Shown: positions 1,862-45,100 of the stretch, piece after piece
Numbering within the stretch: position 1 is the first letter of the stretch
Layout of the letters: the number at the start of each line of letters is the position of its first letter
Origin: Clitopilus passeckerianus
Taxonomy: Eukaryota; Basidiomycota; Agaricomycetes; Agaricales; Entolomataceae
Length of the DNA stretch: 64,000 nt
Direction: 5' to 3'
Assembly: GCA_944990035.1 (NCBI GenBank)
Contig: CALYLX010000133.1
Span: forward strand, 434,001-498,000
The notes under the pieces: generated by a model
The model's input: only the letters and a program-made list of their open reading frames with translations
What the model was told of the DNA's origin: nothing
Database searches by the model: none
Made by a program: the position numbers and the translations under genes

Positions 1862-4800
1862 CTACGTTGAAAGAAACAGCCGAGGAAACAATGGATCATG
1901 CATGAAGTGAAACCAATCCCAGTCCTCTGCCCCTCTTGCCCGAAGCAGTAAGCAGATTTCCTCCCATTGTGGGTCGATATGTGCTTGCCTTTGGGCATAA
2001 AAGAGTGGGGAATGCCCTTCATTGTCCGGTAGATTGATGTCCAAGTCCTCTCGGGAGAGTAGAAGTTCGGCGATTGATTTAGCATTAACATCAGCGGCAT
2101 CCATGTGCCACGGGGTGACGCAGACACCAACAAGGACAGTCCTTCCTCTGATGTCGCTGCTGTTCACTTGGATACCCGACTGATTCAGGAGGCATTTGAC
2201 GAGGCCTTCTTTGTGATTAGAAGTGGCCCAGTAAAGTGGGGTCCGCCCTTCTTTGTCGGCGAGGTTGACATCGATGCCTGGGTTGTCGAGCAAGAGCCTC
2301 ACCACCGCTTCATTAGCATGCTGAATTGCCAAGAGCAGTGGTGTCCACCCTTCCAAGTCTGCTAAATTTACGTTTGCCTTGTGCTTGAGTAAAAGTGCCA
2401 CCGTTGCTTCGCAGTTCCAGCGAATGGCATGCATTAATGGCGTCCAGCCGTTAGACTCCACCAAATTTATGTCGATGTCCTCGTGGTCGAGCAGAAGTTC
2501 AACTATTGCTGGGCGGTATCGGCCGGCTGCATAGCTTAATGGTGTCCGCCCGTCGTGATTGGTGGCGTTGATATTAATATTATGGTGTTGTAGCAAGAAT
2601 CGTATAGCTCCTTCACTGTCACTGATGTCCCAAAGTGCCCTGGACAGCGGCGTAAACCCGTCCGAGTCTGCCAAATTCGTATCAATGCACTCGTGCTCGA
2701 GTAAGAGTGCCACAACCGCATCGTGGTCATGTTCAGTTGCATGACTGAGCGCGGTCCTCTCGGCGTTGTCCATCAAATTGACCTCAATATCGTCGTGGCT
2801 AAGCAAGAGTGCTACCTCTGCTTCGTGGCCATACCGGCAGGCATGGATTAACGCCGTGCCTCCGCCTGCATCCTTCCCATTTATAGCGCCGGTTGGTAGC
2901 GGTCTTTGTGCAGACTGCCTATAGGAGAGGAAGCTGGCGGCTAAGGCATCATGCTCCGTCCTAGACCACCCTAGCATTGCCTTGAGACAAGTCTTCCTTC
3001 CCGCGCGGGCGGCATAAATGAGGGGTGTTCTGCCCTCAACTGTCAGGGAACTTCCTCTAGCGTGGCTAGAAGCTTTCCTAATGTGTCAATCCGATCGTAC
3101 CATATTGCCAGGAAGATAGGGGATATCTTGGGAGTTGAAGTACGATCCTTAATGTGAAAATGTGTGAAGATGTGGCTGGAACACAGATGATCTGCTATGT
3201 TGCTGCTCGTTAGGAACATATCGAGATCGCTTGGTTCCTCTTCTTGGCTATGGGATGCCAGATAATCAGTTGCATGGTTGGCAAAAGGGAAGGGGTCAGC
3301 ACCGCGTTGGCCCCCACGCATCTTAAAATATGCCTCGAGGCCTGGCGAGAAGGATAGGTAGGCAAGACAGGCTCTGAAAATTGCCCCTTCAGCGTCCGGA
3401 AAATATCGGCGTTGAATATCGGCGTTGTCAAAGAAATCTTGGGCCGTAAAATCTGAAATAATGGAAGCTCGGCATAAGATACACCAGGCACACAATCGAG
3501 TACTTACGGACAAAAACGACACTTCTATCTCGAATGATGACTCGGCCAGCACAGAGAGAAGTGATTGTTGACATGGACGTGACATAGTCCTCGATATTTT
3601 GGAGCCCAGGCCGAGTAGCCAGTGCATGCTGTAGCTCTCTGACGGACAAACGCCGCTTTGAACGTGCGACCCAGGCCAGAGCCATCATAGCGAGCTCCCT
3701 GTGTGATTCAGGGTATGTCCTCATCCGTTGGAGGACCCGTTCATAAGTCGCGTCGATTCCACGCGGGAGAACTTCCAGTGCATCCGGAAGACTGCCTGGA
3801 TTGAGTTGCTCCGCGAGAGTATTCATGTGGAGCTCAGCCATCAGGAACCTATTCCGTGAGTGGTCTTCAGAGAGCACGAACAGCAGTTTGACATCATCCA
3901 AATCCCACCTTCCTCCAGCGGCCTTCGTCACCTTGTCCTCGATTTCCTTTGACAAGAGATCTGGGATGGAGAAACGAAACCCCGATGTTCTGGTCCTGCA
4001 GTATATATATCTTGCCATGTCTTCGTCGCTCGCAACAATATCCTCTCGTTTTGCGCCTAGTTCTTGGAAGAGTTCTTCCATGCCATTAAGAATACGCGAG
4101 GTGATAAGTAGCTTGATCATACTCCCAAGAGAGGTTAGTGTCGTCAGGAGTTTCCGGATGTCCTCAAGGTTATAGTGCTCCAGGTATTCGTCAAGGGCAT
4201 CGAGCACGATCTAATATTGCTGAAAGTTTTGACATGTATTTGAAAGAGCGGTATAGAGACCATTGGCTGGGGGCCGCGGGTGGTTAATATGGTTGGCCTC
4301 GTAAAAGGCTTCTAGACTTGAGGAGGCCCCTAGGCCTTGGTAAGATTCGTACAGCTGCCTTGATAGGCTTCCGAGGACCATAGTGGCACTCTGTTGACCT
4401 TGAAGCTTGTAGTTGAAGTACGTGAATCCAATAGCCACACGTTCAGAACGACGCTGGCGTAAATAATCGATACAAGAGTGCTGGGAAAATAGAAGATATG
4501 AGGCATATGGTATTGAAAGGATAAACTGCTCAGAAGACAAGAGCCAGCTTCCAGTGTTCTCAGCTCGTTTCCTGGAGATGTCATGGTGCGTCAGCCGGTA
4601 GTCGGCCGAGGAATACCATTTGGCGACCTTTCTGTGGTCGCCTAGAATAGCAAGTCAGAGAAAAAGTTGAGGAATATGGGAAATGGGTCCTTACTCGAAT
4701 CTGAGAAAATTTTCTGTAAGCCAGCAGTTCCAAAAGTGGTGGACGCTGACGTTACTTACAGACGATTTCCCAGTTATCTCCTGCAATGTTCTTGAAATTT

Positions 4801-5759
4801 CCACCATAGAATTCGATTCCGTCGCGGTTCTTCAACCCTTCTAAAACATTGTTCTGAACATCTGGTCGTGCCCTAGTGCCCTCATGAGTTTGGCTTGCAG
4901 GCGCTTCTGCCTTGGTTGTTCCGTCAGCCCTTTCAGGGTGTCCAATAGCTGTAGCATTGCCTTCCCGCTCGTCTCTGCACCCTTCGTCTCCCCGCTCATC
5001 CTGTAGTGTTTCTTGAGTGATCAACGCTTCCGTAAATTGAGTTGTTAATGTGTAAGGTTGCTGAACGCTTACTATCCTCCTCCTCGACTTTCACTGCAGG
5101 CATCGTTGGGGAACTGGGTTGAGATAATACATCATGCTTGGGATTGAGATGTCCCCCGGTCCTGGTATCCTCATTCCGGTAATCTGACGTATCTTTCACG
5201 AGGCTCACGACGATGTCTGTATATCATTCAAGTCAGAATTGGATTCGGTGACTAAATTGAGCTACTTACTGTGAGAGCGCAAAGCTTCGAAGGAACCTCT
5301 CCTCCAGCAAGCTAGAAATATATCACGAAGTTCTGCATCCCCTTCCAACAGTTTCGCCACCTCTCCCTCTTTCAGCGAAGCTCCAAGGTATGACAGGATC
5401 TCTCCAAGCAACGCAGCTTCAACAATAGACCCGATGTGAGTAGACATCGTTCTATACGTAGCCCAATCGTATTTCAAGAGCAAGAGGGTGTCTTCTTCGA
5501 CTCTCATGGTATCTTCGCTCTCCTCACTCTCCTCGCCCACACTGGCCTCTAGATTATCCGCATGGGTTCCATTTTCCCGTTCAAATATTTCCGCGGAGGT
5601 TGTATCTGCATGCTCCTGAGCGGATTCGCTGCCAGTTGTAACAGGCAGCTTTCTGTGTTCCCATAGGAGGTAACCACCGGCAAGAATGGCCAGTGCACCA
5701 GCTGGAATGAGATATTTCGGCAATCGATTACTGGTGCGAAAGCGACCATAAAATGACAT
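1862..5759 (-). pseudogene. NACHT-ankyrin NLR copy A (P-loop lost, nonsense, frameshift)
   Basis: Order on the minus strand: basic N-terminus plus hydrophobic helix (LIPAGALAILAGGYLLW, start ATG 5759), acidic linker, a conserved helical block ending FLACWRRGSFEAL, the short motif YGGNFKNIAGDNWEI, NACHT domain, helical region, then ankyrin repeats ending near 1862. Three lesions are visible against copies B and C. (1) The segment with the P-loop exon and flanking introns is absent; the reading goes from the SSEQF region straight to CIDYLRQ (about 4472-4530) and no GKT is present. (2) A TAG at 4211-4213 replaces the Tyr/Phe codon just before Walker B IVLDALDE. (3) One base is missing near 3046-3052, giving a TGA at 3043-3045, after which the ankyrin part continues in another frame. 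Its ankyrin repeats are more diverged than those of B and C. It could only make truncated products. Confidence 0.85.
4695..4700 (-). other. Candidate 6-nt microexon (copy A)
   Basis: ATTCGA lies between a CAG acceptor and a GTAAGG donor. The same position and flanks recur in copies B and C. Included, it adds codons for Tyr-Ser-Ser across the two junctions between the GGNF motif exon and the NACHT lead exon. Skipping it also keeps the frame, so expression data are needed. Confidence 0.5.
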
Positions 5760-11200: not shown

Positions 11201-12441
11201 CATTACATCTGTTTGTTCTGAGCCAGAAAAGTCTTCAGGGGAGACGCCATCAAGGATGCATGCGAGCTGCGCTTCCGGGCCCAAACCCTTCTTGTCAAGA
11301 ATGAATTTTGCAGCAGTGGATGCAATGATGAAGAGCTTTCCTGCAATGCCGCATAACATATCCATGTCTTTGGCATTTGGCTGCCATGCAGGTTGACGTT
11401 TGGGGAAAACCCTCATAACACGCTCGACAGATAAGGAGGAGGAGAGATATAAGCGAATATCAGTTTCAACGATGGTGTCGTCAATGTCGTGCAAATGGAA
11501 AAGTTCGTGGTTGCTATCATCTTCGAGGATTTCTCGGATATGCTGTTCTGGGCGAGCAGTAACGAGGATCCTGAGTTGGGGTAGATGGTGGATATGCTGG
11601 GCGAGAAGGGTTAAGAGTAATTCGGCTTCATCATCTTTGCATTCGTCGAGGGCGTCAATAACAATGAGAATCGGGTGCTCCTTCTGAACCAAGAGACTTT
11701 GAAGTGGGGAGAGGATGAGGAGTTGCAGCTGCTGTAGGAGATTTTTCTGCGCAGCATCTGGGTCGTGTTCGACTGCCTCGGCGATCCGACGAGCAAATGT
11801 TTCGTTAAAGCAAGCAAGGTGGAATGCGATGGTTGGAAAAAAATGTTTGGCCATCATTCGTTCTACTTCATTTCTCGTGAAGAAGAAGCTGGCGCCGAGC
11901 ATGCCAAGATATGCAGCTCGCTCAGCTACCGTCTGCGATATCGTTGATTTCCCTATACCAGCTATTCCATCCAGCACATATATTGGTATTTGATTACCAC
12001 CGGTGAACCACATCTCTATTTCGCCCAGTAGCTGTACGCGTGTGTTTTCGAAGCATTTTGATCTTTCGTGGGCCGTGTAGGAGTTATATGCTGCACTGAT
12101 TGGATTAAGAAGTGCCTTGAGGCGAACCTACTCCCCATTAGCGAGTGCAGGAACCGTGATCCACGGGATGGGATACATACTAGCATCGGCGTATCCTTAT
12201 TGATCGTCAAATTTCCTGCAACATTGTTTATGTTAATGTCTCTTTCAGCAGCCAGCCGATTGTTTGTCATAGTCGAACTGAATTGGAGGCCATGAGGGGA
12301 ACGCGAGCCTGGTAGGTACGAGGGTGGGCCAGAGGCATCTGCAGGAGAGGTAAACGTAGCGTTTCTGACTGTCCCATCGTCCTGTGGCTCGTCCATGATT
12401 ATATCGGCCAAGTCCATGTATGGAGGAGCAGACGCTGCCAT
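8203..12441 (-). CDS. NACHT-WD40 NLR-like protein (HET-D/E/R type architecture)
   Basis: Start ATG 12441. Intron 1 (GTATGT to TAG) joins NKDTPML to VRLKALLNPISAAYNSY; intron 2 lies near 10458-10540. N-terminus: disordered, then the motif ININNVAGNLTINKD, then the lead-in helix. The NACHT domain has Walker A GIAGIGKST and Walker B ILIVIDALDEC, and a winged-helix-like region follows. The C-terminal half holds 13 near-identical WD40 repeats plus a degenerate final one. Family knowledge: such STAND proteins in fungi sense non-self through WD repeats and trigger incompatibility or cell death; NTP-driven oligomerisation is expected. No frame lesion was seen. The N-terminal effector type is not recognisable beyond the short beta-motif. 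It sits between pseudogenes A and D on the same strand. Confidence 0.9.
8605..10240 (-). repeat. 13 tandem WD40 units, 126-bp period
   Basis: Each unit reads like GHSxxVxAVAFSPDGSRLA followed by SASxDxTVRLWDGKTG. Units differ mainly at a few fixed positions: the residues after GHS (AV, LV, CI, WV, EV, SV, GV) and the S-x-D-x-T spot (SDD, YDR, YDN, DDH, SDK, CDG, GDQ, ADK, ADG). This is the pattern of WD repeats under concerted evolution with selected variable sites. Confidence 0.9.
12194..12243 (-). other. Short beta-rich motif in NACHT-WD40 N-terminus
   Basis: Encodes ININNVAGNLTIN, similar in pattern to the GGNFKSVAGDNWEI motif upstream of NACHT in copies A-C. It lies before the NACHT domain in both gene types, where fungal NLRs may carry amyloid-forming or adaptor motifs. 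Function is inferred only from position and pattern. Confidence 0.45.
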
Positions 12442-13679: not shown

Positions 13680-15625
13680 GCTCATTCCAACCAACATCGT
13701 GCTGGTTGAGCAGGAGTGCCACCGCTTCTTCATGGCGGAGTCAAACTCCCTGTATCAGCGGCGTCCATCTGTGAAACTGACACTGATGCAGCAGCAGCAG
13801 AGCGTCAGAGTCACACGCAGTAGGATGGAACAGTGGTGCTCGACCTTTGTCGTCTGCCAAACCGGAGGGCAAAAGACGCCACGACTGCTTCACGGCAATG
13901 GATACATCCATGCATGTACCAACGCCGTGCAACCCTCCTCATCCCTTCCTTTGTGTCCTAGTCGGGAGGCTGGGCTGGGCTCTACGAGAGCCACGTAACA
14001 TCGCTTAAGGGCAAGTTGCACCGCCAGTGCAAGTAGTGTACATCAGAGATGTTAGACCCCATGCAGTAAGAGGGTATACATGCAGCAACGATGATCCGCG
14101 CGTCCTTGATTGCGAGAAATAGGCCAAGGCCTGTTAACGTTTCCTAAGCATGGCCTTGAGCAGGAAGGGCTAAGCTTCGGGGTCTCGAGGATTTCACAAA
14201 TTTCCACGTAGCGGATGGGTGTTCGGAGGGATAGGCGTGAGGCAGGTCCAAAAATGCCTCTTGAGCCCCGGAGAAGTATTGGGCCAGCATACGAGAGTGG
14301 TCGAAGAAATCTCGAGCTGTGATAACTGAGTAAATATGTGATTAGCGAGCGATTCATAAGTAAGCATATAGATAGGACTTACGGACAAATGTTGAGCTAT
14401 GACGAGACCACTACATGGGATGTGGTTGTTGGCGCCGGCGTAACATATTCCTCTATGCTTTCCAGCACGGGTCGGGTGACGGGCTTCTCCCAGTACTCAT
14501 GAGAGCATCAAGCTCGATATAATGCCACCAAAATTGCCAAAATGTCTTCGAAAGAGTGGGGTGCAGGCCGTTTGCTGGGAGTCGCGACGCCCTCGAGATT
14601 GGGTGATGTAGCACGGCTTTAATATGCGTTACCTAGAAGGTAAATACTAAGTAAGCGGTCGAGCCATAAGTAAGGACGGCAGGTTCGACTGACAGTAAAA
14701 CCGGTCTGCTACAATATCGTTGAAGATTCCATCGTGGATTTCAGCAACATAGCGGCCTTGCAGGACGTTGTTTAAGGTTTCTTGGGTTCCTTCAAAGCCT
14801 GGAGCGTCAAGAGCAACAGTCGGGCTCTGACTACTGGTTCGCTTCGCAATACGGTTCGCTTTGTCTTTGCTCAAAATGGTGTTGAGTCCCTGTGGCACCA
14901 GTACACCGTAAGTCGACATTCTTGGATCAGGTTAAGGGGTTGCTTACCATCTCTATCCTCTTACGCGATAATGGGCATCATGAAACCTCCGAGCTGCCAT
15001 GCACCGTATTCTGTGCCAGCTTTGGGGCTGATGGGTTCGTTCCTGCAGCTCAGTGTGTTCCGGACGAGGCTCAAAATGGTGTCTGAAAAGGTCTTGTCAG
15101 TGACGAAACCGGGAAACGCAGGTAGACTGAAATACGTACCTTGGTACCACGACATCTCGAAGGAGCCTTTATCCCAGCACGCGAGAAGTAGGCGCCAAAG
15201 CTGCGCGCCTTCGGCCAGCAGTTTGGACACTTCTCCCTCGTTTGAAATAACTCCAAGGCTGGCAAAAAGTCGCCAGGGAATGCAGGTTCGACAACTGCCG
15301 GACCCAATTCGACATCTTCTTATATATGGTCAATCCTATCACCCAAGGAGTGTTACTTCTTCGTCGGTTTCTACACCATTTCCGTGAGCCTCGAAGTTTA
15401 TCTGTTCTTGCTCTTTTTGGTTGGCCTTCGGTGTTCGTGCAATGGTGCCACTTTCGTCTTCAGCATCATGCCACTGGTGACAGCAGACCACGGGTGTTCT
15501 ATACTCCCAGGTAGTTTGGCCACCAGCGAGGAGTACAAATGCATCAATCGGGAGAAGATAGGTCGAAAGCCGATTCCTGGTGTAGAAACGACGTTCAAGT
15601 TGAGAGCAAAGTTCTTGGACAAATA
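13680..15625 (-). pseudogene. NACHT-ankyrin copy D, heavily decayed
   Basis: Pieces of the same gene family occur in order on the minus strand. About 15600-15530: FYTRNRLSTYLLPIDAF (membrane anchor). About 15240-15160: EGEVSKLLAEGAQLWRLLLAC. About 15080: DTILSLVRNT. About 14745-14700: the IHDGIFNDIVADRF motif. About 14590-14490: LPANGLHPTLSKTF and HYIELDAL (Walker B remnant). About 14480-14430: RPVLESIEEYVT. About 14330-14210: ITARDFFDHSRM. About 13930-13680: ankyrin scraps such as RHEEAVALLLNQHD. Frames change repeatedly, stops are frequent, and the NACHT lead exon and P-loop are missing. It cannot encode a receptor. Confidence 0.8.
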
Positions 15626-15699
15626 GACGCAAACGGACACTTACTCTCCAAATTCCCTCCCTTTGCACGCCCACCAAATTCTGGGACATGGACCGAGTC

Positions 15700-17480
15700 T
15701 AATACCCACTATACACTGGCTATACGGGGAAGAAATCACACTTCTACCATGACGAAGAAATTTACGAAATTCGTCGAGTATTCGGAATCGTTACTTCAGA
15801 AACATGGATATCCAAATTGAACATGTTACATGAGTGGGATGGGTAAGCGTTCCTTTCTCTCTCGATGCTCTCTTCTGCCCTTTGCCAGTGCTAGTGATTG
15901 CTAAACGTTGAACCATTGACTGACTCACCGCTTACTGATACCATTCACATTAGGCAGAATCATCACTGGAGACCATATTTTTGCAAGCAAGATGGCGCAG
16001 GAACATCCACTTTCTCATCCGTGGTCAGCATCAAGAGGAATGGAGGGGGTTTGATGATTGTATGCAGGTACAGCTCGTTACATCTGGCTTCTTTCCATGC
16101 CTCCGTCAATCCTTCGTTCTCATCCCTTCCTACTCGTTTTCCCCTATCATCATCTTCTCAACAATCGAGAAACGACTGACTGACGATGTACTTACAGCAT
16201 GGGAGGGCCAACTCCACCTCGCATCTCTGAGTCCTCCATCACTCGCCCTGCCCGAGGGCTGGCCACAGTCACGAAGTGTACTACGGCTAGGGATTCAATC
16301 ATCCATTTCAGCGAAAAGCCCGTGAATGAGTACGTTACTTTCTCACTCTGTTCATCGCTACGCTTTCCTCCCTTTTCTTTTTCCTGCCTTTCCTTTTCCC
16401 CGTTTACGATGTCCTTCTCCCATCCTTCACGTCCCTAGTTCTGACTCCGTCGCGCATACACCGACTAACTCGTCACTCACAGACGCTGGCTTGGCTAGGC
16501 CCGATCGCTATAGAAGGTTGCTTTGCGAACAATATCCCACGAATATCCTTCTTCTAGATATGGGAGGAGGATTGGCAGTAGTTAGGTTACGAGCACCCGA
16601 ATCGGGCAGTTATGACTTCCACCCAGGTACATATCTTTTCGTTCAATCTTCTCCCGTTCCTACCTCCTTCATCCCTCTCTTCACCACTTCTCTTGAACCT
16701 GACCCATCACTGCGGGAACAGACAACTGACGACGCGCTCACAGGAACATCCCATTTTAAATCCAATGCAGAAGTCTACGTCGTTCGAGCTACACAAATTA
16801 GCTCTGCATCCGCCTCATTGAGAGCAAACTCCTCGTCGCCTTCTTCGCCACCCACCAGACTCTCAAGTTCTAGATCACGCCAACCACAAGCCGGACATTC
16901 CGTTACCCATCAATGCCGCAAGTTTCGAGCTTTTCATATTCCGCACACTCGCGGCCCTGCTCAACCACCCCAAACGACAATAGCGGTTCTTCACTGCACT
17001 ACAGGCATTCCATCCCCCACCACGGCACCATCTCTACTTCTATCATCTCTGACCCTTCCATCTCGAGGATGCACCAGCAGCCGCACTGGCCGGGCTAGAC
17101 GAAGTGGAAGGACCAACGGTCTAGGGAAGTTCACGTCGGAAGCCCGTCAACAACAGTTTCAGGAGCAGTGGGGCCACCAGCTCGAAGTTGCGACGAGCTT
17201 CGAGCTTCATCTGGCGTCTGGCTAGGCCCTAGTTCGAGTTGGAATTGGCCTCAAGATACTACCGTCGCCGCGCCAGAGTCGGAAGATTGCTCCAAGCTGT
17301 TTGGCGCCATCATGATCTGGGGGTTGGGTCGGCGGAATGGAGGTGGGAGCGGGGCCGCTAAACAAGGGAGGGGAGGTTGGACGAAAGAACTTCTGCGACA
17401 ATTTCATTCTTATTCGCCGGAAGTGATTGAGAAAATAGATTCCCTGCTGGCGCCTTGCTCTATCTGTCGCTGAGTGACAA
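15700..17480 (+). pseudogene. Relic coding unit E3, unknown family
   Basis: Several exon-like blocks lie between plausible splice sites. About 15954-16069 reads LQARWRRNIHFLIRGQHQEEW. About 16483-16625 reads RYRRLLCEQYPTNILLLDMGGGL then AVVRLRAPESGSYDFHP. About 16745-16840 reads SNAEVYVVRATQISSASAS. The end near 17060-17100 (ctcgaggatgcaccagcag) resembles the ends of units E1 and E2. Frames shift and stops interrupt, so I treat it as a decayed gene. I do not recognise the family. It converges on copy B. Confidence 0.4.
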
Positions 17481-20430: not shown

Positions 20431-22040
20431 TGACCAACTGGGAGCATTCCTTGTGCATCCTCTACAGAGAGGCCTGAGCAGCGTAACATTGCTTCAAGGC
20501 ACGCTGTCCTCCCCATGCGCGCAGCATAGATCAGAGGTGTTCTACTTTCAGCTGTCAGGGGAACCTCTTCATGGGCGCAAAGAAGATTTTGTACTGTGGC
20601 AATTCGATTGTAGTGTATTGCCAGGTAAACGGGGGATATAGCGGTAGTTGAAGGACGATCGTAGAACAACGTGAGCACGTGTACACAGCACACATGGACG
20701 GCTGTATTGCTGCTTGTCAAGAATTTGTCGACATCTTCCGAAGCCTGCTCAGCCCGCCCATGAAGCGCCAAGTTCTGGACTGCATAATCATAGAATGGAA
20801 TGATATGCGATACTGAACCCCACGTGGATTCTTGCAATGTGTCGATGCATAGTGAGAGGGAAACATAGGCAAGGCATGTCCTGAATATTGAGTCTTCCGC
20901 AAGGGGGAAGTACTTGGATTGGATGTGAAGGTTGTTGAAGAAGTCTTGAGCAGTGAAATCTGAGAGAACAGAAGATCAGCGTGGAATCCAGCTAGCACAG
21001 TGCCGAGGACGTACGGACAAAAATAACACTCTCGTCTCGCACAATGACCAGGCCAGCACACAGAGAGGTGATTGTTGACATGGATGTAACATGATCCTCG
21101 ATATCCTCCAACCCAGGCTGGGTGGCCAAGGCATGCTGCACCTCTCTGACAGATAACCGCCGCTTTGCACGGGAAACCAGGGTCAAGGTCATCATAGCGA
21201 GTTCCCTGTGCGATTTGGGATACGTCTTGATGCGTTGAAGGACTCGCTCATATGTAGCATCAATTCCTTTGGGAAGATCAAACAGAGCTTTTCGGAGACT
21301 ACCACGATTAAGTTGTTCCTTGAGAGTGTTCATGTGGAGCTCGGCCATGAGGAACCTAAGTTTGATGTTTGGTGAGAGCAGAATAACCATCTTGTAACGT
21401 AGGACTCTTACCTTCCTCCTGCAGCCTCCTTGACTTTCTCCACAATTTCCTCTGACAATGCATCTGGAATGTCAAAGCGAAACTCCGCTGTTTCAATCCT
21501 GCTCTTGAGATATCTTTTCATGTCCTCATCATCTACAATGATCTCCTCTTTGCTCGCCTCGAACTCTCCAAATAACCTTCCATCCCATCCAAAAACCGCG
21601 ACGTGATAAGTAACTTGATCATGGGTCCCAGTGAGGCGAGAGCCGTCAAGAGCTTGCGGATGTTCTCTATGTTGTAGCTCTCTAGGTACTCGTCGAGCGC
21701 ATCAAGCACAATGAAGTACTGCCGAAATCGCTGGCACGTCTTAGACAGAGCACCGTGGAGTCCGCTGGCCGGTGGTCGAGTGTAGTCCTTCTTGTTTGTA
21801 TTATACAAGTCTTCAAGACAGGATGACGTCCCGTCGCCTTCATAAGCTTCGTATAGCTGCCTTGAGAGGCATTCAAGAACCATTGTTGTACTCTGTTGAC
21901 CTTGAAGCTTGTAGTTGAGGTAGGCGAATCCGATGGCTACAGTTTCGGAGCGATGCTGGCGTAAATAGTCGATCACAAGCGAGCTGAAGGACAGAGGGAT
22001 GAGTGACAGCTTGAAAGGAGTAATCACCGGAACAACTTAC

Positions 22041-22065
22041 GCTATAGTAGTCTTTCCGACTCCCG
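22041..22065 (-). other. 25-nt microexon carrying the P-loop (copy B)
   Basis: Flanked by ...ctag and gtaagt. Together with one base from each neighbouring exon it encodes P-G-V-G-K-T-T-I-A, i.e. the complete Walker A. Joining to the left exon gives LWCPGIPGVGKTTIASLVIDY. The same exon exists in copy C; it is absent in copy A. Confidence 0.85.
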
Positions 22066-22348
22066 CTAGATAGGAGGAACCCGGTCAGAATAGGGCAATA
22101 TTGTTGAGATGAAGTCCTTACGTATGCCTGGGCACCATAGGACACGACAGCTGGGGTCTGTCTGCCACTGCTTGAACGACTCCGAGTTAAGTAGCCACAT
22201 TCCGGTATTCTTTGCTCGTTTCTTCGAGATATCATTGTGCGTCAGCCGGTAGTCCGTCGAAGAATACCATTCTGCCACTTTTCTATGGTGGTCGCCTAAG
22301 TTTGCAGGTCATAAGCAAAAGTAAACGAATCTGCGGACAAGTCCTTAC

Positions 22349-22354
22349 TTGAAT
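22349..22354 (-). other. Candidate 6-nt microexon (copy B)
   Basis: ATTCAA between a CTAG acceptor and a GTAAGG donor, upstream of the exon that begins with DHHRKVAEWYSS. Conserved in position and flanks in A and C. Inclusion gives ...EITYSSDHHRK.... Both inclusion and skipping keep the frame. Confidence 0.5.
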
Positions 22355-22410
22355 CTAGAAGGAGCATGTGCGTCAGATGTCATGGCCAAGCATTGTACAC
22401 CCCGAACCTA

Positions 22411-22470
22411 CAAGTAATCTCCCAATTATCACCTGCGACACTCTTGAAGTTTCCGCCGGTTATCACGATT
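22411..22470 (-). other. GGNF motif before NACHT (copy B)
   Basis: Encodes ITGGNFKSVAGDNWEIT just before the introns leading into the NACHT domain. Near-identical in copy C (37224-37283), slightly changed in A (YGGNFKNIAGDNWEI) and worn in D. Strict conservation between long variable linkers suggests a functional short motif. Confidence 0.6.
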
Positions 22471-23446
22471 CCATCGCGAGTCTCTAGGCCCTCGAGGATG
22501 GATTCCTGAACTCCTTTCAGCTCACGGATATCGGGACGTGTTTGAGCAACAGATATTCTCGGCGGCTCAGCCACCAGCTCGTTCGTTTCAATCCATTCAG
22601 TATCCGGACCCGTAGTGCCCCCGCCTGAGTCTCCCGTCTTAACGACTGCGTTCTCTGTTGTTTGTTGATCAGCTTGGCTGTCTTTATGCCTGGACCCATC
22701 CAGTAGTAGTTCCCGGGTATTCGAGTCTGCCGTACGTTGGATTACTGGCCGGGGAATAAGTCTCAATCACTGCTTACTATTGGCCTTCTCGTTCCTAACC
22801 GCCGGTGCAACAAGAGGACTGGGTGGCATTGCCTCGTGTTCTGCCTCCAAACAGACGCTGGGAATGGTGTCCTCATTCGGGCAGCCCGATGTGTTCTTTA
22901 CGAGCTTTATGAAAGTGTCTGTATATCATTTCAGCCAGTAACAAATTCAGTCATCTGGTGGAATTACTTACCATTGCACCTCAACGCATTAAAGGAGCCT
23001 TGTTCCCAACATGCCAGGAGCACTGCACGAAGCACTGAGTCTTCTAACAACAGTTTTGTGGCCTCCCCTTCCTTCACTGTAGCTCCATAGCGCGACAGAA
23101 CCATACCGAGAAGCGATGCTTCAACGATAGGCCTGAAGTGAGGTGAAAGCGTCTTATACTCGGCCCAATCATATTCCGAGAGCAACGACATGTCTTCTTT
23201 GGATTCCATATCATCTTCACCCTTGTTCAGGGCTTCCTTTTCTGTACTTTCGGTGGATGCGTCTTCATCTTCCTCAGGTGGTATGGCTGAAGTCGCGGAT
23301 GCATCTTCTCGGCTGGAGCTGCTGGCAGCAACAGCAGATCGTGTCCCATACTCCCATAGGAAATAGCCGCCAGCTACAAGTGCCAATGCACCAGCTGGGA
23401 TCAGATACTTTGAAAGTCGATTCCTGGCCCGGAAACGGCCCAACAT

Positions 23447-34286: not shown

Positions 34287-37200
34287 CTACGAGGTTGATG
34301 TCCGAGTTGACGCCTCATGGTTGAGCAAAAGTCCCACCACTCCTTTATGGCCCCTTCCGACTGCATGGGTTAATGGTGTCCATCCATTTTTGTCCGCCAA
34401 ATTGACATCGATACCCTTGTGGTTGACCAAGCGTCCCACCACTCCTTCATGACCATTAACAGCTGCCCAGACCAATGGTGTCCATCCCTTGGATGTCGTC
34501 AAATTGACATTGGTGCCCTTGTGGTTGAGCAACAGTCCCACCACTCCTTCATGACCATCTTCAGCTGCATGGCTTAATGGTGTCCCTCCATCGGATTCAG
34601 CCAAATTGACGTTGATTCCCTTGTGGTTGAGCAAAAGTCCCACCACTCCTTCATAGCCACTTCCGGCTGCATGGCTTAATGGTGTTCTTCCATCGTCGTC
34701 CGCCAAATTGACGTCGATGCCCTCGCGGTTGAGCAAGAGTCCCACCACTCCTTCATGACCATTAACAGCTGCCCATATCAATGGTGTCCATCCATCGGAT
34801 TCCGCCAAATTGACATCGATGTCCACGTGGTTGAGCAAGAGTCCTACCACTTCTTTGTGGCCCCTTCCGACTGCATGGCTTAATGGTGTCCATCCATTTT
34901 GGCCCGCCAAATTGACGTCAATGCCCTTGTGGTTGAGCAAGAGTCCCACTACTCCTTCATGGCCCCTTCCGACTGCATGGCTTAACGGCGTCCTTCCATG
35001 ATTGTCCGCCAAATTGACGTCGATGCCCTTGTATTTGAGCAAGAGTCCCACCACTCTTTCATGGCCATTCCGAGTTGCCCAGATCAATGGTGTCCACCCA
35101 TCGGATTCCGCCAAATTAACGTTGATGCCCTCGTGGTTGAGCAAGAGTCCCACCACTCCTTCATGGCCACTTCCGGCTGCATGACTTAATGGCGTCCTTC
35201 CATTGGCATCTCCTCCATTGACATGGCTAACTGGGTGCATTCCTTGTGCATCCGCTGCAGGGAGGCCCGAGCAGCGTAACATTGCTTCAAGGCACGCTAT
35301 CCTGCCCATGCGTGCCGCATAGATCAGAAATGTTCTACTTTCAGCTGTCAGGGAAACCTCTTCATGGGCGCGAAGAAGATTTTGTACTATGGCAATTCGA
35401 TTGTAGTGTATTGCCAGATACACAGGAGATATAGCGGTAGTTGAAGGCCCACGATCGTAGAACAAAGTGAGCACGTGTACACAGCACATATGGACGGCTA
35501 TATGGCTGCTTGTCAAGAATTTGTCAACGTCTTCCGAAGCCTGCTCAGCCTGCCCGTGAAGGGCCAAGTTCTGGACTGCATAATCATAGAATGGAATGAT
35601 ATGCGATACTGAACCCCACGTGGATCCCTGCAATGTGTCGATGCATAGTGAGAGGGAAACATAGGCAAGGCATGTCCTGAATAACGATTCTTCCGCGCCG
35701 GGGAAGTACTTGGATTGGATGTGAAGGTTGTCGAAGAAGTCTTGAGCAGTGAAATCTGAGAGAACAGAAGATCCATAAGATCAGCAGGAAATTTAGCTAG
35801 CACAAGTGCCAAGGACGTACGGACAAAAATAACACTCTCGTCTCGAACAATGACCAGGCCAACACACAGGGAGGTGATTGTCAACATAGAGGTAACATGA
35901 TCCTCGATATCCTCCAACCCGGGCTGGGTGGCCAATGCGTGCTGCACCTCTCTAACAGTTAATCGCCGCTTTGCGTGGGAAACCAAAGTCAAGGTCATCA
36001 TGGCGAGTTCCCTGTGCGATTCGGGATATGTCTTGATGCGTTGAAGGACACGTTCATACGTAGCGTCAATTCCTTTGGGAAGATTAACTAGAGCTTTCTT
36101 GAGGCTGCCCCGATTGAGTTGTTCTGTGAGTGTATTCATGTGCAGCTCGGCCATGAGAAATCTACCCATAATTGGTGTTCAGTAAGAGCGAAACAATTAT
36201 CTGGTAGACTAAGACTCCCACCTTCCTCCTGCAGCGTCCTTCACCTTCTCTACGATTTCTGTTGACAACTCGGCCGAAATGTCGAAGCGGAATCCTGCCG
36301 TCCCAATCCTGCTCTCAAGATATGTTTTCATGTCTTCACCATCTGCAACAATCTCCTCTCGGCTTGCCCCGAACTCCTCGAATAATACGTCCATCCCATC
36401 TAAAAACCGCGACGTAATAAGTAGCTTGACCGCGTTTCCCAAGGAGCCAAGTGTTTTGAGGAGCTTGCGAATGTCGTCGATGTTATAGTTCTCCAGGTAC
36501 TCGTCAAGCGCATCAAGTACGATATAGTAACAACCAAATTGTTGGCAGGTCTTGTACAGAGCGGCGTGAAGACCACTGGCCGGGGGCTGGGGGTGGTCGT
36601 TCTGGTTGGCCTCATAGAAGGCCGCAAGATTTGAGGAGGTTCCATTGCCTTGATATGCTTCGTATAACTGCCTCGATAAGCTTTCCAGAACGGCCGTTGC
36701 ACTCTGTTGTCCTTGAAGCTTATAGTTGAAGTAGGCGAATCCGACGGCTACGGTTTCGGAGCGATACTGACGTAGGTAATCGATCACAAGTGAGCTAAGG
36801 GAGAACAAGGAAATTAGCCCAAGTAATCAACGGTGCGTGGCAACGCACGCTATAGTGGTCTTTCCGACGCCGGCTGAATAGGAACGAGCCCGTTAGGTAC
36901 AATACTATAGCAGGGCGGGGTTGGAGTCCTTACGTATGCCCGGACACCATAAAATACAGCTACTGACGGCTGTCTTCCACTTGATGAACGATTCTGAACG
37001 AAGTAGCCACATTCCGGTACTTTTCGCTCGCTTCTTCGTTATATCATGGTGCGTTAGGCGGTAATCTGTTGCGGAAAACCATTTGGCGAGTTTTCTGTGG
37101 TGGTCGCCTAAGTTTGTAGGTCATGAGCAAAAGTGAACGAATCTAAAAATCTCTCCTTACTTGAATCTAGAAGGAGCATATACGTCAGCTATCATGGCCA

Positions 37201-38259
37201 GGCATTGAAAACCTCGACCTTACAAGTAATCTCCCAATTATCGCCGGCGACACTCTTGAAGTTTCCGCCAGTTATTACGATTCCATCGCGAGTCTCTAGG
37301 CCCTCGAAGATGGATTCCTGAACTCCTTCCTGTCCTTGGATGTCGGTACGAGTTTGAGCAACGGGCGCTTCCTGCTCAGCCACCAACTCGTTCCTTTCAA
37401 TCCATTCAGTCTCCGGACCCACAGTACCATCGTCTGAGTCTGCGCTCTGAACGACTGCGTCGCCTCTGGCAGCTTCATCGGCTTCGCGGTCTTTGTGCCT
37501 GGATCCATTCTGAGACGGTTCTTGGTCGGTTGAGGCTATCGTATGGTCAATTACTGATCATGGATGAAATTTTGATCAAACGCTTACTATTGTCCTCCTC
37601 GTTCTTGACCATGGGTGCCACTTGAGATCTGAGCGGCGATACCTGTTGTTCTGCATCGTAGGGGGAGGTATCGTCGGTCTGGGATGTCGGCGTATGCTTC
37701 ACGATGCTTACAATAGTGTCTGTACATGATTTCAGCTTTCAACAATCTCAGCCATCAGATCTGAATCCGTACCATGACGCCTCAAAGCCTCGAACGATCG
37801 CCTCTCCCAGCCTGTTAAGAGCACCGCACGAAGCTCTGAGTGTTCCCATAGCAGTTTCGCGGCCTCTCCCTCCTTCAGTGGAGCTCCAAGGCTCGACAGA
37901 ATCTCAGCAAGTAGCGCAGCTTCGACAATGGATCCAACGTGAGTCGAGAGCATCTTGTACCCGGACCAATTATACCGCAAGAGTAGCAATGCATCTTCTT
38001 TAGTTCCTGCGTTATCTTCGCTCTCCTCCTCCATGGTGCCCACTTCTTGATTCTTGCTGTATGCTTCAATCTCCTCATCCGAGGGGCATACGACTGAAGT
38101 CGTCAACGCATCTTCTTGGCTGGAGCTGCTAGCAGATGCAGCAAATTGTCTTCCGTATTCCCAGAAGAAATAGCCACCAGCTACGAATGCCAATGCACCA
38201 GTTGGGAGAAGAAACTTCAAATGCCGATTCCTAGAGCGGAAACGGCCCAGAAATGACAT
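34287..38259 (-). CDS. NACHT-ankyrin NLR-like protein copy C
   Basis: Nine exons: 38259-37773, 37719-37588, 37535-37224, 37166-37161, 37107-36934, 36873-36849, 36794-36222, 36161-35821 and 35755-34287. The sum is 3519 nt, a complete frame of about 1172 residues. N-terminus: basic MSFLGRFRSRNRHLKF, then the hydrophobic helix PTGALAFVAGGYFFW (residues about 18-34), an acidic Ser-rich linker and a helical block. The GGNFKSVAGDNWEIT motif lies near residues 291-308. NACHT Walker A GVGKTT is near residue 372 and Walker B IVLDALDEY near 470. A helical region (HMNTLTEQLNRG, KGIDATYERVL, RELAMMTLTLV) follows, then nine very similar ankyrin repeats. The protein ends early in a shifted frame compared with copy B. 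It is the only member able to make anchor, NACHT and ankyrins in one chain. Likely role: non-self receptor; ligand unknown. Confidence 0.75.
34310..35215 (-). repeat. Nine ankyrin units, 102-bp period (copy C)
   Basis: Units of 34 residues, type GHEGVVGLLLNHxGIxVNLA then xxxGWTPLxxAxxx. They are more varied than in copy B: three have IWA/VWA in place of SHA, and NHKG, NREG, NHVD and KYKG replace NHEG. The number of units also differs (nine versus seven). Confidence 0.9.
36849..36873 (-). other. 25-nt microexon carrying the P-loop (copy C)
   Basis: Between attcag and gtgcgt. Joined to its neighbours it encodes PGVGKTTIA within WCPGIPGVGKTTIASLVIDY. Leaving it out would shift the frame and remove Walker A. 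Confidence 0.85.
37161..37166 (-). other. Candidate 6-nt microexon (copy C)
   Basis: ATTCAA between ttctag and gtaagg, conserved with copies A and B. Upstream donor ACTT|gtaagg and downstream acceptor cttag|GCGACC complete the model, giving EIT-YSS-DHHRKLAKW. Confidence 0.5.
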
Positions 38260-42114: not shown

Positions 42115-45100
42115 TCAAGCCCGAAGGGGTATGTAAAACTCTGGAAGGTCACCAGCTGGATCGCCCGCTGCGACGTACTCGATATACCTCAAGTTCTGCA
42201 GCGCCTCTTCAACCATCGACGTCGAAGTGAAATCATCCAGACCGGCACATTTCTTGATGGCCTCTTCGTAAGCAAGCTTGGCAGCAGGCCAATCCTCGTT
42301 ACGGACGTAGATTTCAGCGAACTCCACCAAACACTGTGCGATTTGTCGAGACAGGCCAAGCTCCTGATAAAACTGAAGAGCAGTCCTGAACGTTGCATCC
42401 AAATCGCTGTCCCAGCGATCGGCTCTCTTGAGAATGCGGCCTTTGATGAAATGCGATGAAGTCCACTCTTGGCTGGTGAGGTTTTCACCATATAGGGACC
42501 TAAAGCCATCGATGGCGGCATTAATGGCATCAAGAGCTGCTATACTATCCCCTAAGGAAGCATGTGCCCTGGCTATATAGTAGTTGGCGAGGGCAATTTG
42601 GAGCTTGCAAGGTGGGTCAAGTTGCTCGAACAAGAGCTGGGCTTCTTTGAGATCGGCTAATGCTTCTTCGTTCATCACTTGATACCAGTTGATCTGGCCG
42701 CTGTGAAAGAGGAACCAGGCATTATAGGCCGGATTCTCGGCCAGACGATCTCCCCAATGAAAGCGAGCCTCGACCATGCGCTCTTTCGCGATGTTGAAGT
42801 CACCGAAGGCTGTATCCAGATCGATATCCATCAACTCGGATCGGAGTGCCATGAGCTCGTCACCCGAATCTGTGAACATGGTTTGGGCTCTGGTGAAAGC
42901 TTCGCGGGAAGCCTGAAACTTGTTAATGGTCCAGAAGACGGAGCCGAGGCAGAAGAGGGCAGCTGCTTCATGTCGGGTCTCTCCGTGTTTCTTGGCAAGG
43001 GCAACAACATGTTCTGCGATTTCCGGGCGAGGCTTGGTCCAATGCTGATGCCAGGCAAAAGCAAGAAGGGCATCTAGCTGTTCCTTCGGCGTTGTCATGA
43101 TAGGTGCATTGACGTAAGGAGGAGGTGAAGGGGTCGAATCGGCGAAAGAATCCTTGATCATCCTTGTCAACAAGGCGTGGATATTTGTTTCTTGCGTGGT
43201 TATAGCGATAGCATGCTGCTGGAAACGAAAATCGTTGGGTCCTTGAGTTGTTGCGCTGTGTTTCGCCAGGAATTGGTAGCAGGCAGTAAACACCTGGTGC
43301 TGTACTTCGTTGGGAATTCGATGGCGATGTTTCATGTGTGACTGGACGACTGGGAGTACAAAGAGATGCATCTTTGTCTTGTTCCCTATGACAACCTCCC
43401 TCGCCAAAACCAGAGCTGCATCGCGAAGTGTATCCACAGCCTCCGAACGCCATCCTTCAGCCCAAATCGATAGGTCCTCGTGATATATACCGGCGGGTAG
43501 CATGGAGAGAATCTGCAAGAGTCGGATGGCGCCGGGGGAGCGGCTGACGAAGTTGCTGTCTATTGAGAGGCAGATGGAATGATCGATCCCTTCTTCAGGT
43601 TTCGATAACATGGTGCTTCCGATTTCCTTCCACTCCTGGAGAAGTTGTTGAGGGTTGGAGAGGGACCGTTTCCCTCTGGAGGCCATTAGAGTGATGGCGT
43701 AGGGAAGGTGCCCAAGGGCGTCAAGAAGGTCATCAAGTTCGGGATAGTTGGCTGCACTGGCGTCAATGGCAGTGTATATCTTTCGGGAGTCTTCGGGGTG
43801 AATTTGTGACAGACGTTCGCAGTTCCACCTCTCAAGAGGGCTGAATTCTGATCTCATGGTAGTGAGAATGGCAACATGTGGAAGGGCATCCAAGGCTTCA
43901 AGAACCAGTCTGATGGTAGACTGGCTACCTTCGACGGGGTGCCATGGGGTTTCAAAGTTATCGAGAAGAATGATGCAGGGTTCGGTTGTCTCCTGAAGGG
44001 TGGAGATAATGTCGTCAAGAAGGTCTTCCGTTTTCCGCTCCGCTCTGACATGTTTGGACAGAAGAGCTAGGAAGTTCGTTGGGGAATTTGCGCTGATACA
44101 CGGCACCCAAAACCTGCGCTGTCGGGGGAAGCTCTGTTGGATGAGTTCGTGCTCCATGATTGCAAGGGCTGCAGAAGTCTTGCCCATTCCGCCCGGCCCA
44201 ACTATGCAGACGCGAGAGCGTCGGATGTCGCCGCTGGACAAATCTCCTGCAATGCGTTGAACAATAACATCGCGGCCAAAGAAGACATCTGGGGAACGAG
44301 GCATTCTCGCCAGGATGTTGGCTTGCTCGAGCACATTCTTTGTTAACATGGCTTTGAGATCATTCACCGAGCTCTCGATCTCGTAGACCTTCTGCCGAGT
44401 GTCCTTGACATCAACGGCCATTTCTTCTGTTATGCCGTACATTCTGATGAGCTGTTGTTGGATAGTGGCCAAATCCTGAGCAGCATAAAGGGTTTGCAGC
44501 GTCTATTACGAGATAACATGGATCAAGATGTATCCAAGATGGCGTAAGGGTACCCTTACCTGGAAACGACTAATCCCATGTTGAAACTGGAGCTCGCAGT
44601 CATCGATTACTTCTAGATTCGGTTGTGAGAGAAGACCAGTCAGAAAGGCATTTTGATCATTGATAGAGTTGAGCCGCGTGGTGATTGACGCCAGGCAGCT
44701 AAACATTCGAGGCGATTGAGTATAAAAACATGGCTATTCGTAGAGTACGCACTCCTTGAGTTCCCAAAGATCGGTACTAAGGTCATCTGAAAGCTTGGAA
44801 GCAGACTTCGCATACTCGCTGTCTTTTGTGACCTTAGCAACCACAAGAAGAAAGCTGGCGATGCGATTTTTAATCCCGCGACTTTGCTTTGTACGTCGTT
44901 GATAGCCTAAATGCAAGACAATTACGGTCTGCAATCAAGTATCAGAGGGACTGCAAACGTACCTCACAAGTCTTGATGATATTAAGGCCAAGCTCAAGGA
45001 CCTCTTTAACTAGCGGCACAGGAGCAAGAGTGGCAACACCTTTCAGAATTTCAATGGTTCTCTTGGTGGCCTCCAGAGCATAATCAGCAGCGGTTGGTAA

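What the first reader, a model, noticed from the sequence alone, without database searches (positions are those of the whole stretch)
36849..36873. Walker A of an NLR encoded on its own 25-nt microexon
In copies B (22041-22065) and C (36849-36873) the whole GVGKTT P-loop sits on a 25-nt exon between two short introns. Skipping it would shift the frame and remove nucleotide binding, so splicing of one tiny exon could act as an on/off switch for the receptor.
Basis: partly seen in the sequence, partly recalled or inferred. Interest (0 to 1): 0.75.

Follow-up and report, generated by a model that had tools for sequence, protein, structure and literature searches.

The report
Conserved ATP-site microexon in mushroom NLRs
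In this mushroom-like fungus a large family of immune-type receptor genes carries the heart of its ATP-binding site on a separate 25-letter exon, which is probably spliced in as a matter of course rather than used as a switch, but which gene-finding programs can easily miss.

Summary
In copies B (22065-22041) and C (36873-36849), minus strand, PGVGKTTIA sits on a 25-nt exon between two GT-AG introns of 54-60 nt; only the first Gly of GxxxxGKT is on the exon before it. It is no quirk of two copies. The AG|25-nt P-loop|GT pattern occurs 148 times in this genome (alleles included), 0 times in the reversed control. Of 101 family loci read, 94 keep it and none shows it merged with a neighbouring exon. 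The gene also has a 6-nt microexon upstream, in 50 of 91 loci. The on/off switch has no support here: fourfold sites in the microexon and the flanking intron sequences evolve at neutral-like rates and the introns are short. I judge it a constitutive, family-wide ancestral microexon. Breaks in four annotated ascomycete homologs fall exactly on its two edges, so the intron pair may be shared across Dikarya. No RNA data were available.

The parts
36849..36873 (-). Copy C exon 6: 25-nt microexon coding PGVGKTTIA, the Walker A motif without its first glycine
   Evidence: AG before, GT after, frame restored on both sides
22041..22065 (-). Copy B exon 6: 25-nt Walker A microexon
36874..36933 (-). Copy C intron 5 (60 nt, phase 1)
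36795..36848 (-). Copy C intron 6 (54 nt, phase 2)
36934..37107 (-). Copy C exon 5 (174 nt), ends ...ILWCPGI, holds the first Walker A glycine
36222..36794 (-). Copy C exon 7 (573 nt), rest of the nucleotide-binding domain incl. IVLDALDEY (Walker B-like, name recalled)
37161..37166 (-). Copy C exon 4: 6-nt microexon ATTCAA (frame-preserving)
   Evidence: 50 of 91 loci match [CT]AG-6-GTRNG there, against 0-3 of 91 for other exon lengths from 3 to 12
22349..22354 (-). Copy B exon 4: 6-nt microexon
4695..4700 (-). Copy A exon 4: 6-nt microexon ATTCGA
37773..38259 (-). Copy C exon 1 (487 nt): start, hydrophobic stretch LLPTGALAFVAGGYFFWEYG, no Pfam hit
37588..37719 (-). Copy C exon 2
37224..37535 (-). 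Copy C exon 3
35821..36161 (-). Copy C exon 8
34287..35755 (-). Copy C exon 9: ankyrin repeats in one long exon; frame ends at 34287 inside the array
20710..23446 (-). Copy B, exons 1 to part of 9 as modelled; frameshift in exon 7
4526..5759 (-). Copy A, exons 1-5; the 3' third of exon 5 and the Walker A microexon are missing; in-frame TAG in exon 7

Best explanation
The 25-nt exon is an obligatory, constitutively spliced microexon that is part of the ancestral gene structure of a large family of fungal STAND/NLR receptors (NPHP3_N-type nucleotide-binding domain plus ankyrin repeats). Two introns of fixed position and phase (phase 1 in the Pro codon, phase 2 after the second base of the Ala/Ser/Thr codon) cut the P-loop out as about nine codons. 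The spliceosome most likely recognises the short introns (intron definition, recalled knowledge), so the tiny exon needs no special enhancers. Inclusion restores GxPGxGKT and ATP binding; skipping gives an early stop, and so does most intron retention, so errors fail safe. Shown: anatomy, conservation, frames, neutral-like evolution around the exon. Inferred: constitutive inclusion, intron definition, loss of erroneous RNA by nonsense-mediated decay.
For: 148 AG-25-GT P-loop sites in the genome, 0 in the control. 94 of 101 family loci keep the exon, down to about 27% protein identity in the next exon, and none shows it merged with a neighbour. Introns 47-69 and 49-66 nt, GT-AG by construction of the search; the commonest donors are GTACGT and GTGAGT (intron 5) and GTAAGT and GTGAGT (intron 6). 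Fourfold divergence in the exon 0.529 against a mean of 0.506 (sd 0.079) in 65 seven-codon windows. Intron divergence tracks fourfold divergence at 80-98.5% protein identity, 49 pairs. The spliced protein gives one unbroken domain match. In 68 of 91 loci the donor of intron 6 itself reads TAA, TGA or TAG in frame. In plants, microexons found by all three methods compared had a median inclusion near 1 and about half of microexons are not multiples of three, while animal ones are usually in frame (PMC8831610, passages). Phanerochaete P450 genes have exons down to 6 bp and frequent 45-55 bp introns (PMC1184071, passages).
Against: No RNA evidence of inclusion. Both donors beside the exon have C at position -1 (89 and 91 of 91 loci), and over nine positions they match the U1 consensus less well (5.52 and 5.12) than intron 7 donors (6.30 in 23 loci, a set picked by requiring AG before GT, which favours it); this could make splicing leaky. 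The neutrality tests would miss a switch driven only by splice-site strength or by trans factors, and intron comparisons at 70-80% identity are near the shuffled baseline.
Confidence: 0.78

Rival explanations
1. Regulated on/off switch: cells change inclusion of the microexon to make a P-loop-competent or a truncated receptor.
For: Skipping gives a frameshift and stop in 91 of 91 loci. Precedent: a 20-nt, non-3n microexon in Trichoderma virens Xlr2 that is included under low glucose and completes a DNA-binding domain (PMC11121469, abstract and section 2.4). The exon is bordered by splice sites in 94 of 101 loci. Donors with C at -1.
Against: No excess conservation of exon or introns; copy B is frameshifted regardless; no RNA data.
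Confidence: 0.1
2. Splicing noise valve: inclusion is mostly constitutive, but imperfect splicing of two short introns around a tiny exon wastes a fixed fraction of transcripts and so damps the dose of a potentially lethal receptor, without regulation.
For: Retention puts a stop within intron 6 in 82 of 91 loci and within intron 5 in 65 of 91; donors match the consensus less well than intron 7 donors (biased comparison); the Trichoderma Xlr2 authors suspected inefficient splicing beside their microexon.
Against: Stops in a phase-2 intron follow from the usual donor sequence; nothing shows that splicing is poor.
Confidence: 0.1
3. Not an exon: the genes are pseudogenes and the P-loop match is a relic between degenerate sequences.
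For: Copies A and B are broken and copy C ends early in its repeats.
Against: Exact length and splice sites kept in 94 of 101 loci, synonymous change inside the exon, continuous domain match.
Confidence: 0.02

Closest known systems
Fungal STAND/NLR proteins, NACHT-ankyrin class (PF24883 NPHP3_N domain)
   Same: NPHP3_N match at 110.5 bits, ankyrin repeats, tandem and genome-wide expansion; homologs in Ascomycota and Basidiomycota.
   Different: The P-loop is on its own 25-nt exon; other NLRs of this genome, the one at window 12127-10448 and five read loci, have it inside a long exon. The N-terminal 310 residues have no Pfam match.
Tuber melanosporum nank family with codon-sized mini-exons (Iotti et al. 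2012, not seen; described in passages of PMC4986451, PMC3689799, PMC9815663, PMC10197012)
   Same: NACHT-ankyrin genes of a fungus with very small exons.
   Different: There tens of codon-sized exons diversify the C-terminal sensor by alternative splicing; here the ankyrin array of copy C is one exon of about 1.4 kb and the microexons lie in and before the nucleotide-binding domain.
Xlr2 microexon of Trichoderma (PMC11121469, abstract and section 2.4)
   Same: A short exon (20 nt), not a multiple of three, that completes an essential domain and is missed by gene prediction.
   Different: Condition-dependent inclusion was seen there by RNA-seq; not tested here. Here the exon is shared by a family of about 150 loci, alleles included.
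Conserved plant microexons (PMC8831610, passages) and basidiomycete P450 microexons (PMC1184071, passages)
   Same: Small exons, often not 3n, misannotated in plants; P450 exons down to 6 bp beside small introns.
   Different: Not NLRs; no P-loop.

Membership tests
Fungal STAND/NLR (NPHP3_N-ankyrin) | Nucleotide-binding domain over the curated cut-off with intact GxxxxGK[ST] | tested here: met
   Spliced copy C (first 904 residues), PF24883 110.5 bits against cut-off 24.8; GIPGVGKT after splicing
Fungal STAND/NLR (NPHP3_N-ankyrin) | C-terminal repeat sensor | tested here: met
   Ank_2 53.4 bits, cut-off 27.3
Fungal STAND/NLR (NPHP3_N-ankyrin) | N-terminal effector or signalling domain | tested here: inconclusive
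   No Pfam hit at E up to 1 in the first 310 residues
Microexon (internal exon up to 30 nt between spliceosomal introns) | Length, canonical splice sites, frame restored | tested here: met
   25 nt, GT-AG both sides, 91 loci with both neighbours found
Microexon (internal exon up to 30 nt between spliceosomal introns) | Seen in spliced RNA | not testable with these tools
   No RNA data
Switch microexon (Xlr2 type) | Loss disrupts an essential domain | tested here: met
   Frameshift and stop in 91 of 91 loci
Switch microexon (Xlr2 type) | Inclusion changes with condition | not testable with these tools
   No RNA data
Switch microexon (Xlr2 type) | Extra conservation of exon or flanking introns, expected if cis elements regulate it (not defining for all) | tested here: not met
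Tuber nank mini-exon system | Many codon-sized exons in the C-terminal repeat region | tested here: not met
   Copy C ankyrin array is a single open exon of about 1.4 kb

The most novel reading that the evidence does not exclude
The P-loop microexon is an ancient exon kept apart since before the split of Ascomycota and Basidiomycota, and its splicing efficiency is a shared control point: a change in spliceosome activity, for example under stress or after non-self fusion, would cut the supply of ATP-binding receptor from about 150 NLR loci at once, while the 6-nt exon upstream could tune the same proteins without breaking the frame.
Probability: 0.08. Interest if true: 0.82.

Novelty: new variant of a known kind. 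Interest (0 to 1): 0.5.

Why it matters
A 25-nt exon holding the ATP-binding core of a receptor family can be skipped or misread by gene prediction, so some fungal NLRs annotated without a P-loop, or with an odd one, may be annotation errors: four of 144 database homologs break exactly on its edges. It is also a natural test of how spliceosomes handle tiny exons between tiny introns, with a hundred-odd parallel copies in one genome, and of how old NLR introns are. If inclusion did prove variable, it would be a family-wide off switch for fungal immunity-type receptors.

Tried and rejected
Chance motif: rejected by the reversed-pattern control and by conservation. Recent oddity of two copies: rejected by the 101-locus survey. 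Tuber-type sensor diversification: rejected, the ankyrin array of copy C is one exon. Exonic or intronic regulatory constraint: not found. Structure prediction was not run; it would not tell on splicing.

Rows dropped before counts: 7 of 101 loci without a usable microexon (L012, L020, L039, L073, L088, L090, L093); of the 94, L043, L069 and L094 were left out of the intron counts because one neighbour exon was not placed by my rule; 87 of 91 were used for divergence. Intron 7 donors were found in only 23 loci, by a rule that favours good donors. Of the 148 pattern sites, 85 were analysed with their flanks (76 of 77 Val-type, 9 of 71 Ala-type); three more, L110-L112, were fetched but not analysed; the other 60 were seen as pattern matches only.

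Full report
What is there. The window is C130:434001-498000 of a 64.8-Mb genome in 160 contigs. A partial DNA-repair (Artemis-like) protein assembled by eye from the window is closest to Lyophyllum, Termitomyces, Tricholoma and Hypsizygus, 59-64% identity, so the organism is an agaricomycete, probably of the Agaricales (classification recalled). Three related genes lie on the minus strand: A (about 5759-1862), B (about 23446-19275) and C (38259-34287), and a decayed fourth near 15700-14300. Copy C assembles into one open frame of nine exons with introns of 52-65 nt. Exon 6 is the 25-nt exon of the finding, 36873-36849. Exon 4, 37166-37161, is a 6-nt microexon that is not in the finding. The first 904 residues of the joined protein have a full NPHP3_N domain and ankyrin repeats; the GPIID_WHD match (24.6 bits) is below its cut-off of 27.

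Precision of the claim. GVGKTT is entirely on the 25-nt exon (PGVGKTTIA), but the first glycine of GxxxxGK[ST] is in the penultimate whole codon of exon 5, in 91 of 91 loci. Of the two copies named, B carries a frameshift in exon 7; contig C40 holds a near-identical exon 7 with an open frame (L013, 3 mismatches over 572 bases). C has an open nucleotide-binding region but its frame stops inside the last repeats. A lacks the 3' third of exon 5 and the microexon, a deletion as judged by eye, and has an in-frame TAG.

The exon is a family trait. The 191-residue stretch after the microexon has 104 matches in the genome. I read 101 loci; the other three matches are second pieces of loci already read. 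85 of 101 hold a strict AG-25-GT P-loop exon. Four more have GSGKT or GTGKT, and five have a mutated P-loop in an exon of the same length with AG and GT (L028 without the lysine; L068, L096, L102, L103 without the glycine after Pro), 94 of 101 in all. L090 has a GC donor, L088 has lost both splice sites, L039 and L012 are decayed, and L020 (copy A), L073 and L093 lack it. No locus shows the motif merged with a neighbouring exon with an intron gone; in 7 of 91 loci intron 5, and in 4 of 91 intron 6, could be read through in frame, so there separation rests on the splice sites alone. Genome-wide the pattern occurs 148 times (77 with Val, 71 with Ala at that position), against 0 for the reversed control; the core motif without AG and GT has 261 matches, its reversed control 90. 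These counts include alleles, since the assembly seems to hold both haplotypes: 91 loci fall into 71 clusters at 95% identity of the start of exon 7. So the split P-loop seems to mark one superfamily.

The 6-nt exon. Looking 205-262 bases upstream of intron 5 for [CT]AG-n-GTRNG, n = 6 is found in 50 of 91 loci and any other n from 3 to 12 in 0-3 of 91. With one base from the exon before and two from the exon after, it reads Tyr-Ser-Ser or Tyr-Ser-Asn in most of the 39 loci that fit a narrower pattern. That kind of pattern does not find it in most distant subfamilies.

What splicing errors would do. With both introns placed in 91 loci, intron 5 is 47-69 nt (median 53) and intron 6 is 49-66 nt (median 55). 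Skipping the exon gives a stop in 91 of 91 (median 32 codons, at most 134; 59 within 50), after three codons in copy C. Retaining intron 6 puts a stop inside it in 82 of 91 and intron 5 in 65 of 91. In 68 of 91 the donor of intron 6 itself, read in phase 2, gives TAA, TGA or TAG.

Is it a switch? Three signs were examined. Divergence at fourfold sites in the seven whole codons of the exon is 0.529 over 463 pairs, against a mean of 0.506 (sd 0.079) for 65 windows in the flanking exons. Intron 5 and intron 6, splice signals left out, differ by 0.239 and 0.237 at 80-90% protein identity (28 pairs) where fourfold sites differ by 0.234, and by 0.083 and 0.119 at 90-98.5% (21 pairs) where fourfold sites differ by 0.091; at 70-80% (148 pairs) the intron values (0.381, 0.392; fourfold 0.465) are close to the shuffled baseline of 0.421 and say little. 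The intronic parts of the donors score about 5.1 of 6 against GTAAGT, above the 4.4 of intron 7; but over nine positions the microexon donors score lower (5.52 and 5.12 against 6.30), since position -1 is C in 89 and 91 of 91, forced by the protein, while the 23 intron 7 donors were picked by requiring AG there. None of this shows regulation; none excludes it. The likeliest working is constitutive splicing by intron definition (inference). In a plant survey microexons found by all methods had a median inclusion near 1 and about half of microexons were not 3n, while animal microexons are usually in frame (PMC8831610, passages). The fungal precedent for a switch is Xlr2 of Trichoderma virens, whose authors call functional microexons not previously described in filamentous fungi (PMC11121469, abstract and section 2.4).

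How old is it? Homologs found with copy C are at best 33% identical (27 proteins), from Ascomycota and Basidiomycota. Of 144 homologs (27, 117 more from the 120 listed of 1130) aligned to a 112-column profile, 137 run through. Seven do not by my rule. Four break exactly on the microexon's edges: P0042 (Glutinoglossum) begins at its first codon, P0046 (Trichoglossum) stops at the codon before it, and P0095 (Trichoglossum) and P0027 (Pyronema) begin at the codon after it. P0021 (Flavoplaca) begins three columns before; P0022 has extra residues close to the second edge and P0088 further on. By eye, P0005 (Thermothelomyces) also has six extra residues exactly at the second edge and P0011 (Corynascus) a garbled stretch at the first. 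Such scars are what mispredicted splicing of the same two introns would leave, so I infer that the intron pair occurs in ascomycetes too. This is indirect: no DNA of those species was read, and the 137 that run through could have or lack the introns.

In print. Searches on microexon with fungi and NLR, basidiomycete, P-loop and NACHT, truffle and NACHT, filamentous fungi, exon skipping with NLR and P-loop, and Agaricomycetes listed no paper whose title or abstract start reports a Walker A microexon in NLRs; two searches showed only 20 of 1,450 and of 113 papers, and the library lacks most subscription papers. I did not see Iotti et al. 2012 on Tuber. Small exons are known in basidiomycete multigene families: 41 Phanerochaete P450 genes carry exons of 29 bp or shorter (PMC1184071, passages), so tiny exons as such are ordinary here. 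What is unusual is the fixed 25-nt exon on the catalytic motif across about 150 receptor loci, alleles included.

Noticed in passing
window 37161-37166, 22349-22354, 4695-4700: A 6-nt microexon (ATTCAA or similar) two exons upstream of the Walker A exon, present in 50 of 91 family loci by pattern.
   Followed up: yes
window 10448-12127 and 8203-10476, minus strand: NACHT-type NLR with a P-loop inside one long exon and WD40-like repeats in the next open frame, lying between copies A and B (WD40 recognised by eye).
   Followed up: partly
window 42115-44502, minus strand: NB-ARC type protein in one long open frame; an equally scoring match lies on contig C131, which suggests an allelic contig.
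   Followed up: no
window about 14300-15700, minus strand: A decayed fourth copy of the A/B/C gene, recognisable by eye from its N-terminal and exon 3-like parts.
   Followed up: no
L028, L068, L096, L102, L103: Family copies whose microexon keeps length and splice sites but has a changed P-loop residue; L028 has lost the lysine and may be P-loop-dead.
   Followed up: partly
L090; L088 with its sister L071: L090 has a GC donor after the microexon; L088 has mutations at both splice sites of the microexon where L071 has AG and GT.
   Followed up: partly
window about 34287-34313: Copy C leaves its frame inside the last ankyrin repeats, with repeat-like sequence continuing in another frame.
   Followed up: no
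genome contigs C130, C40, C131, C44 and others: Near-identical genes on different contigs suggest that the assembly holds both haplotypes of a dikaryon; copy B's exon 7 is frameshifted on one contig and open on another.
   Followed up: partly
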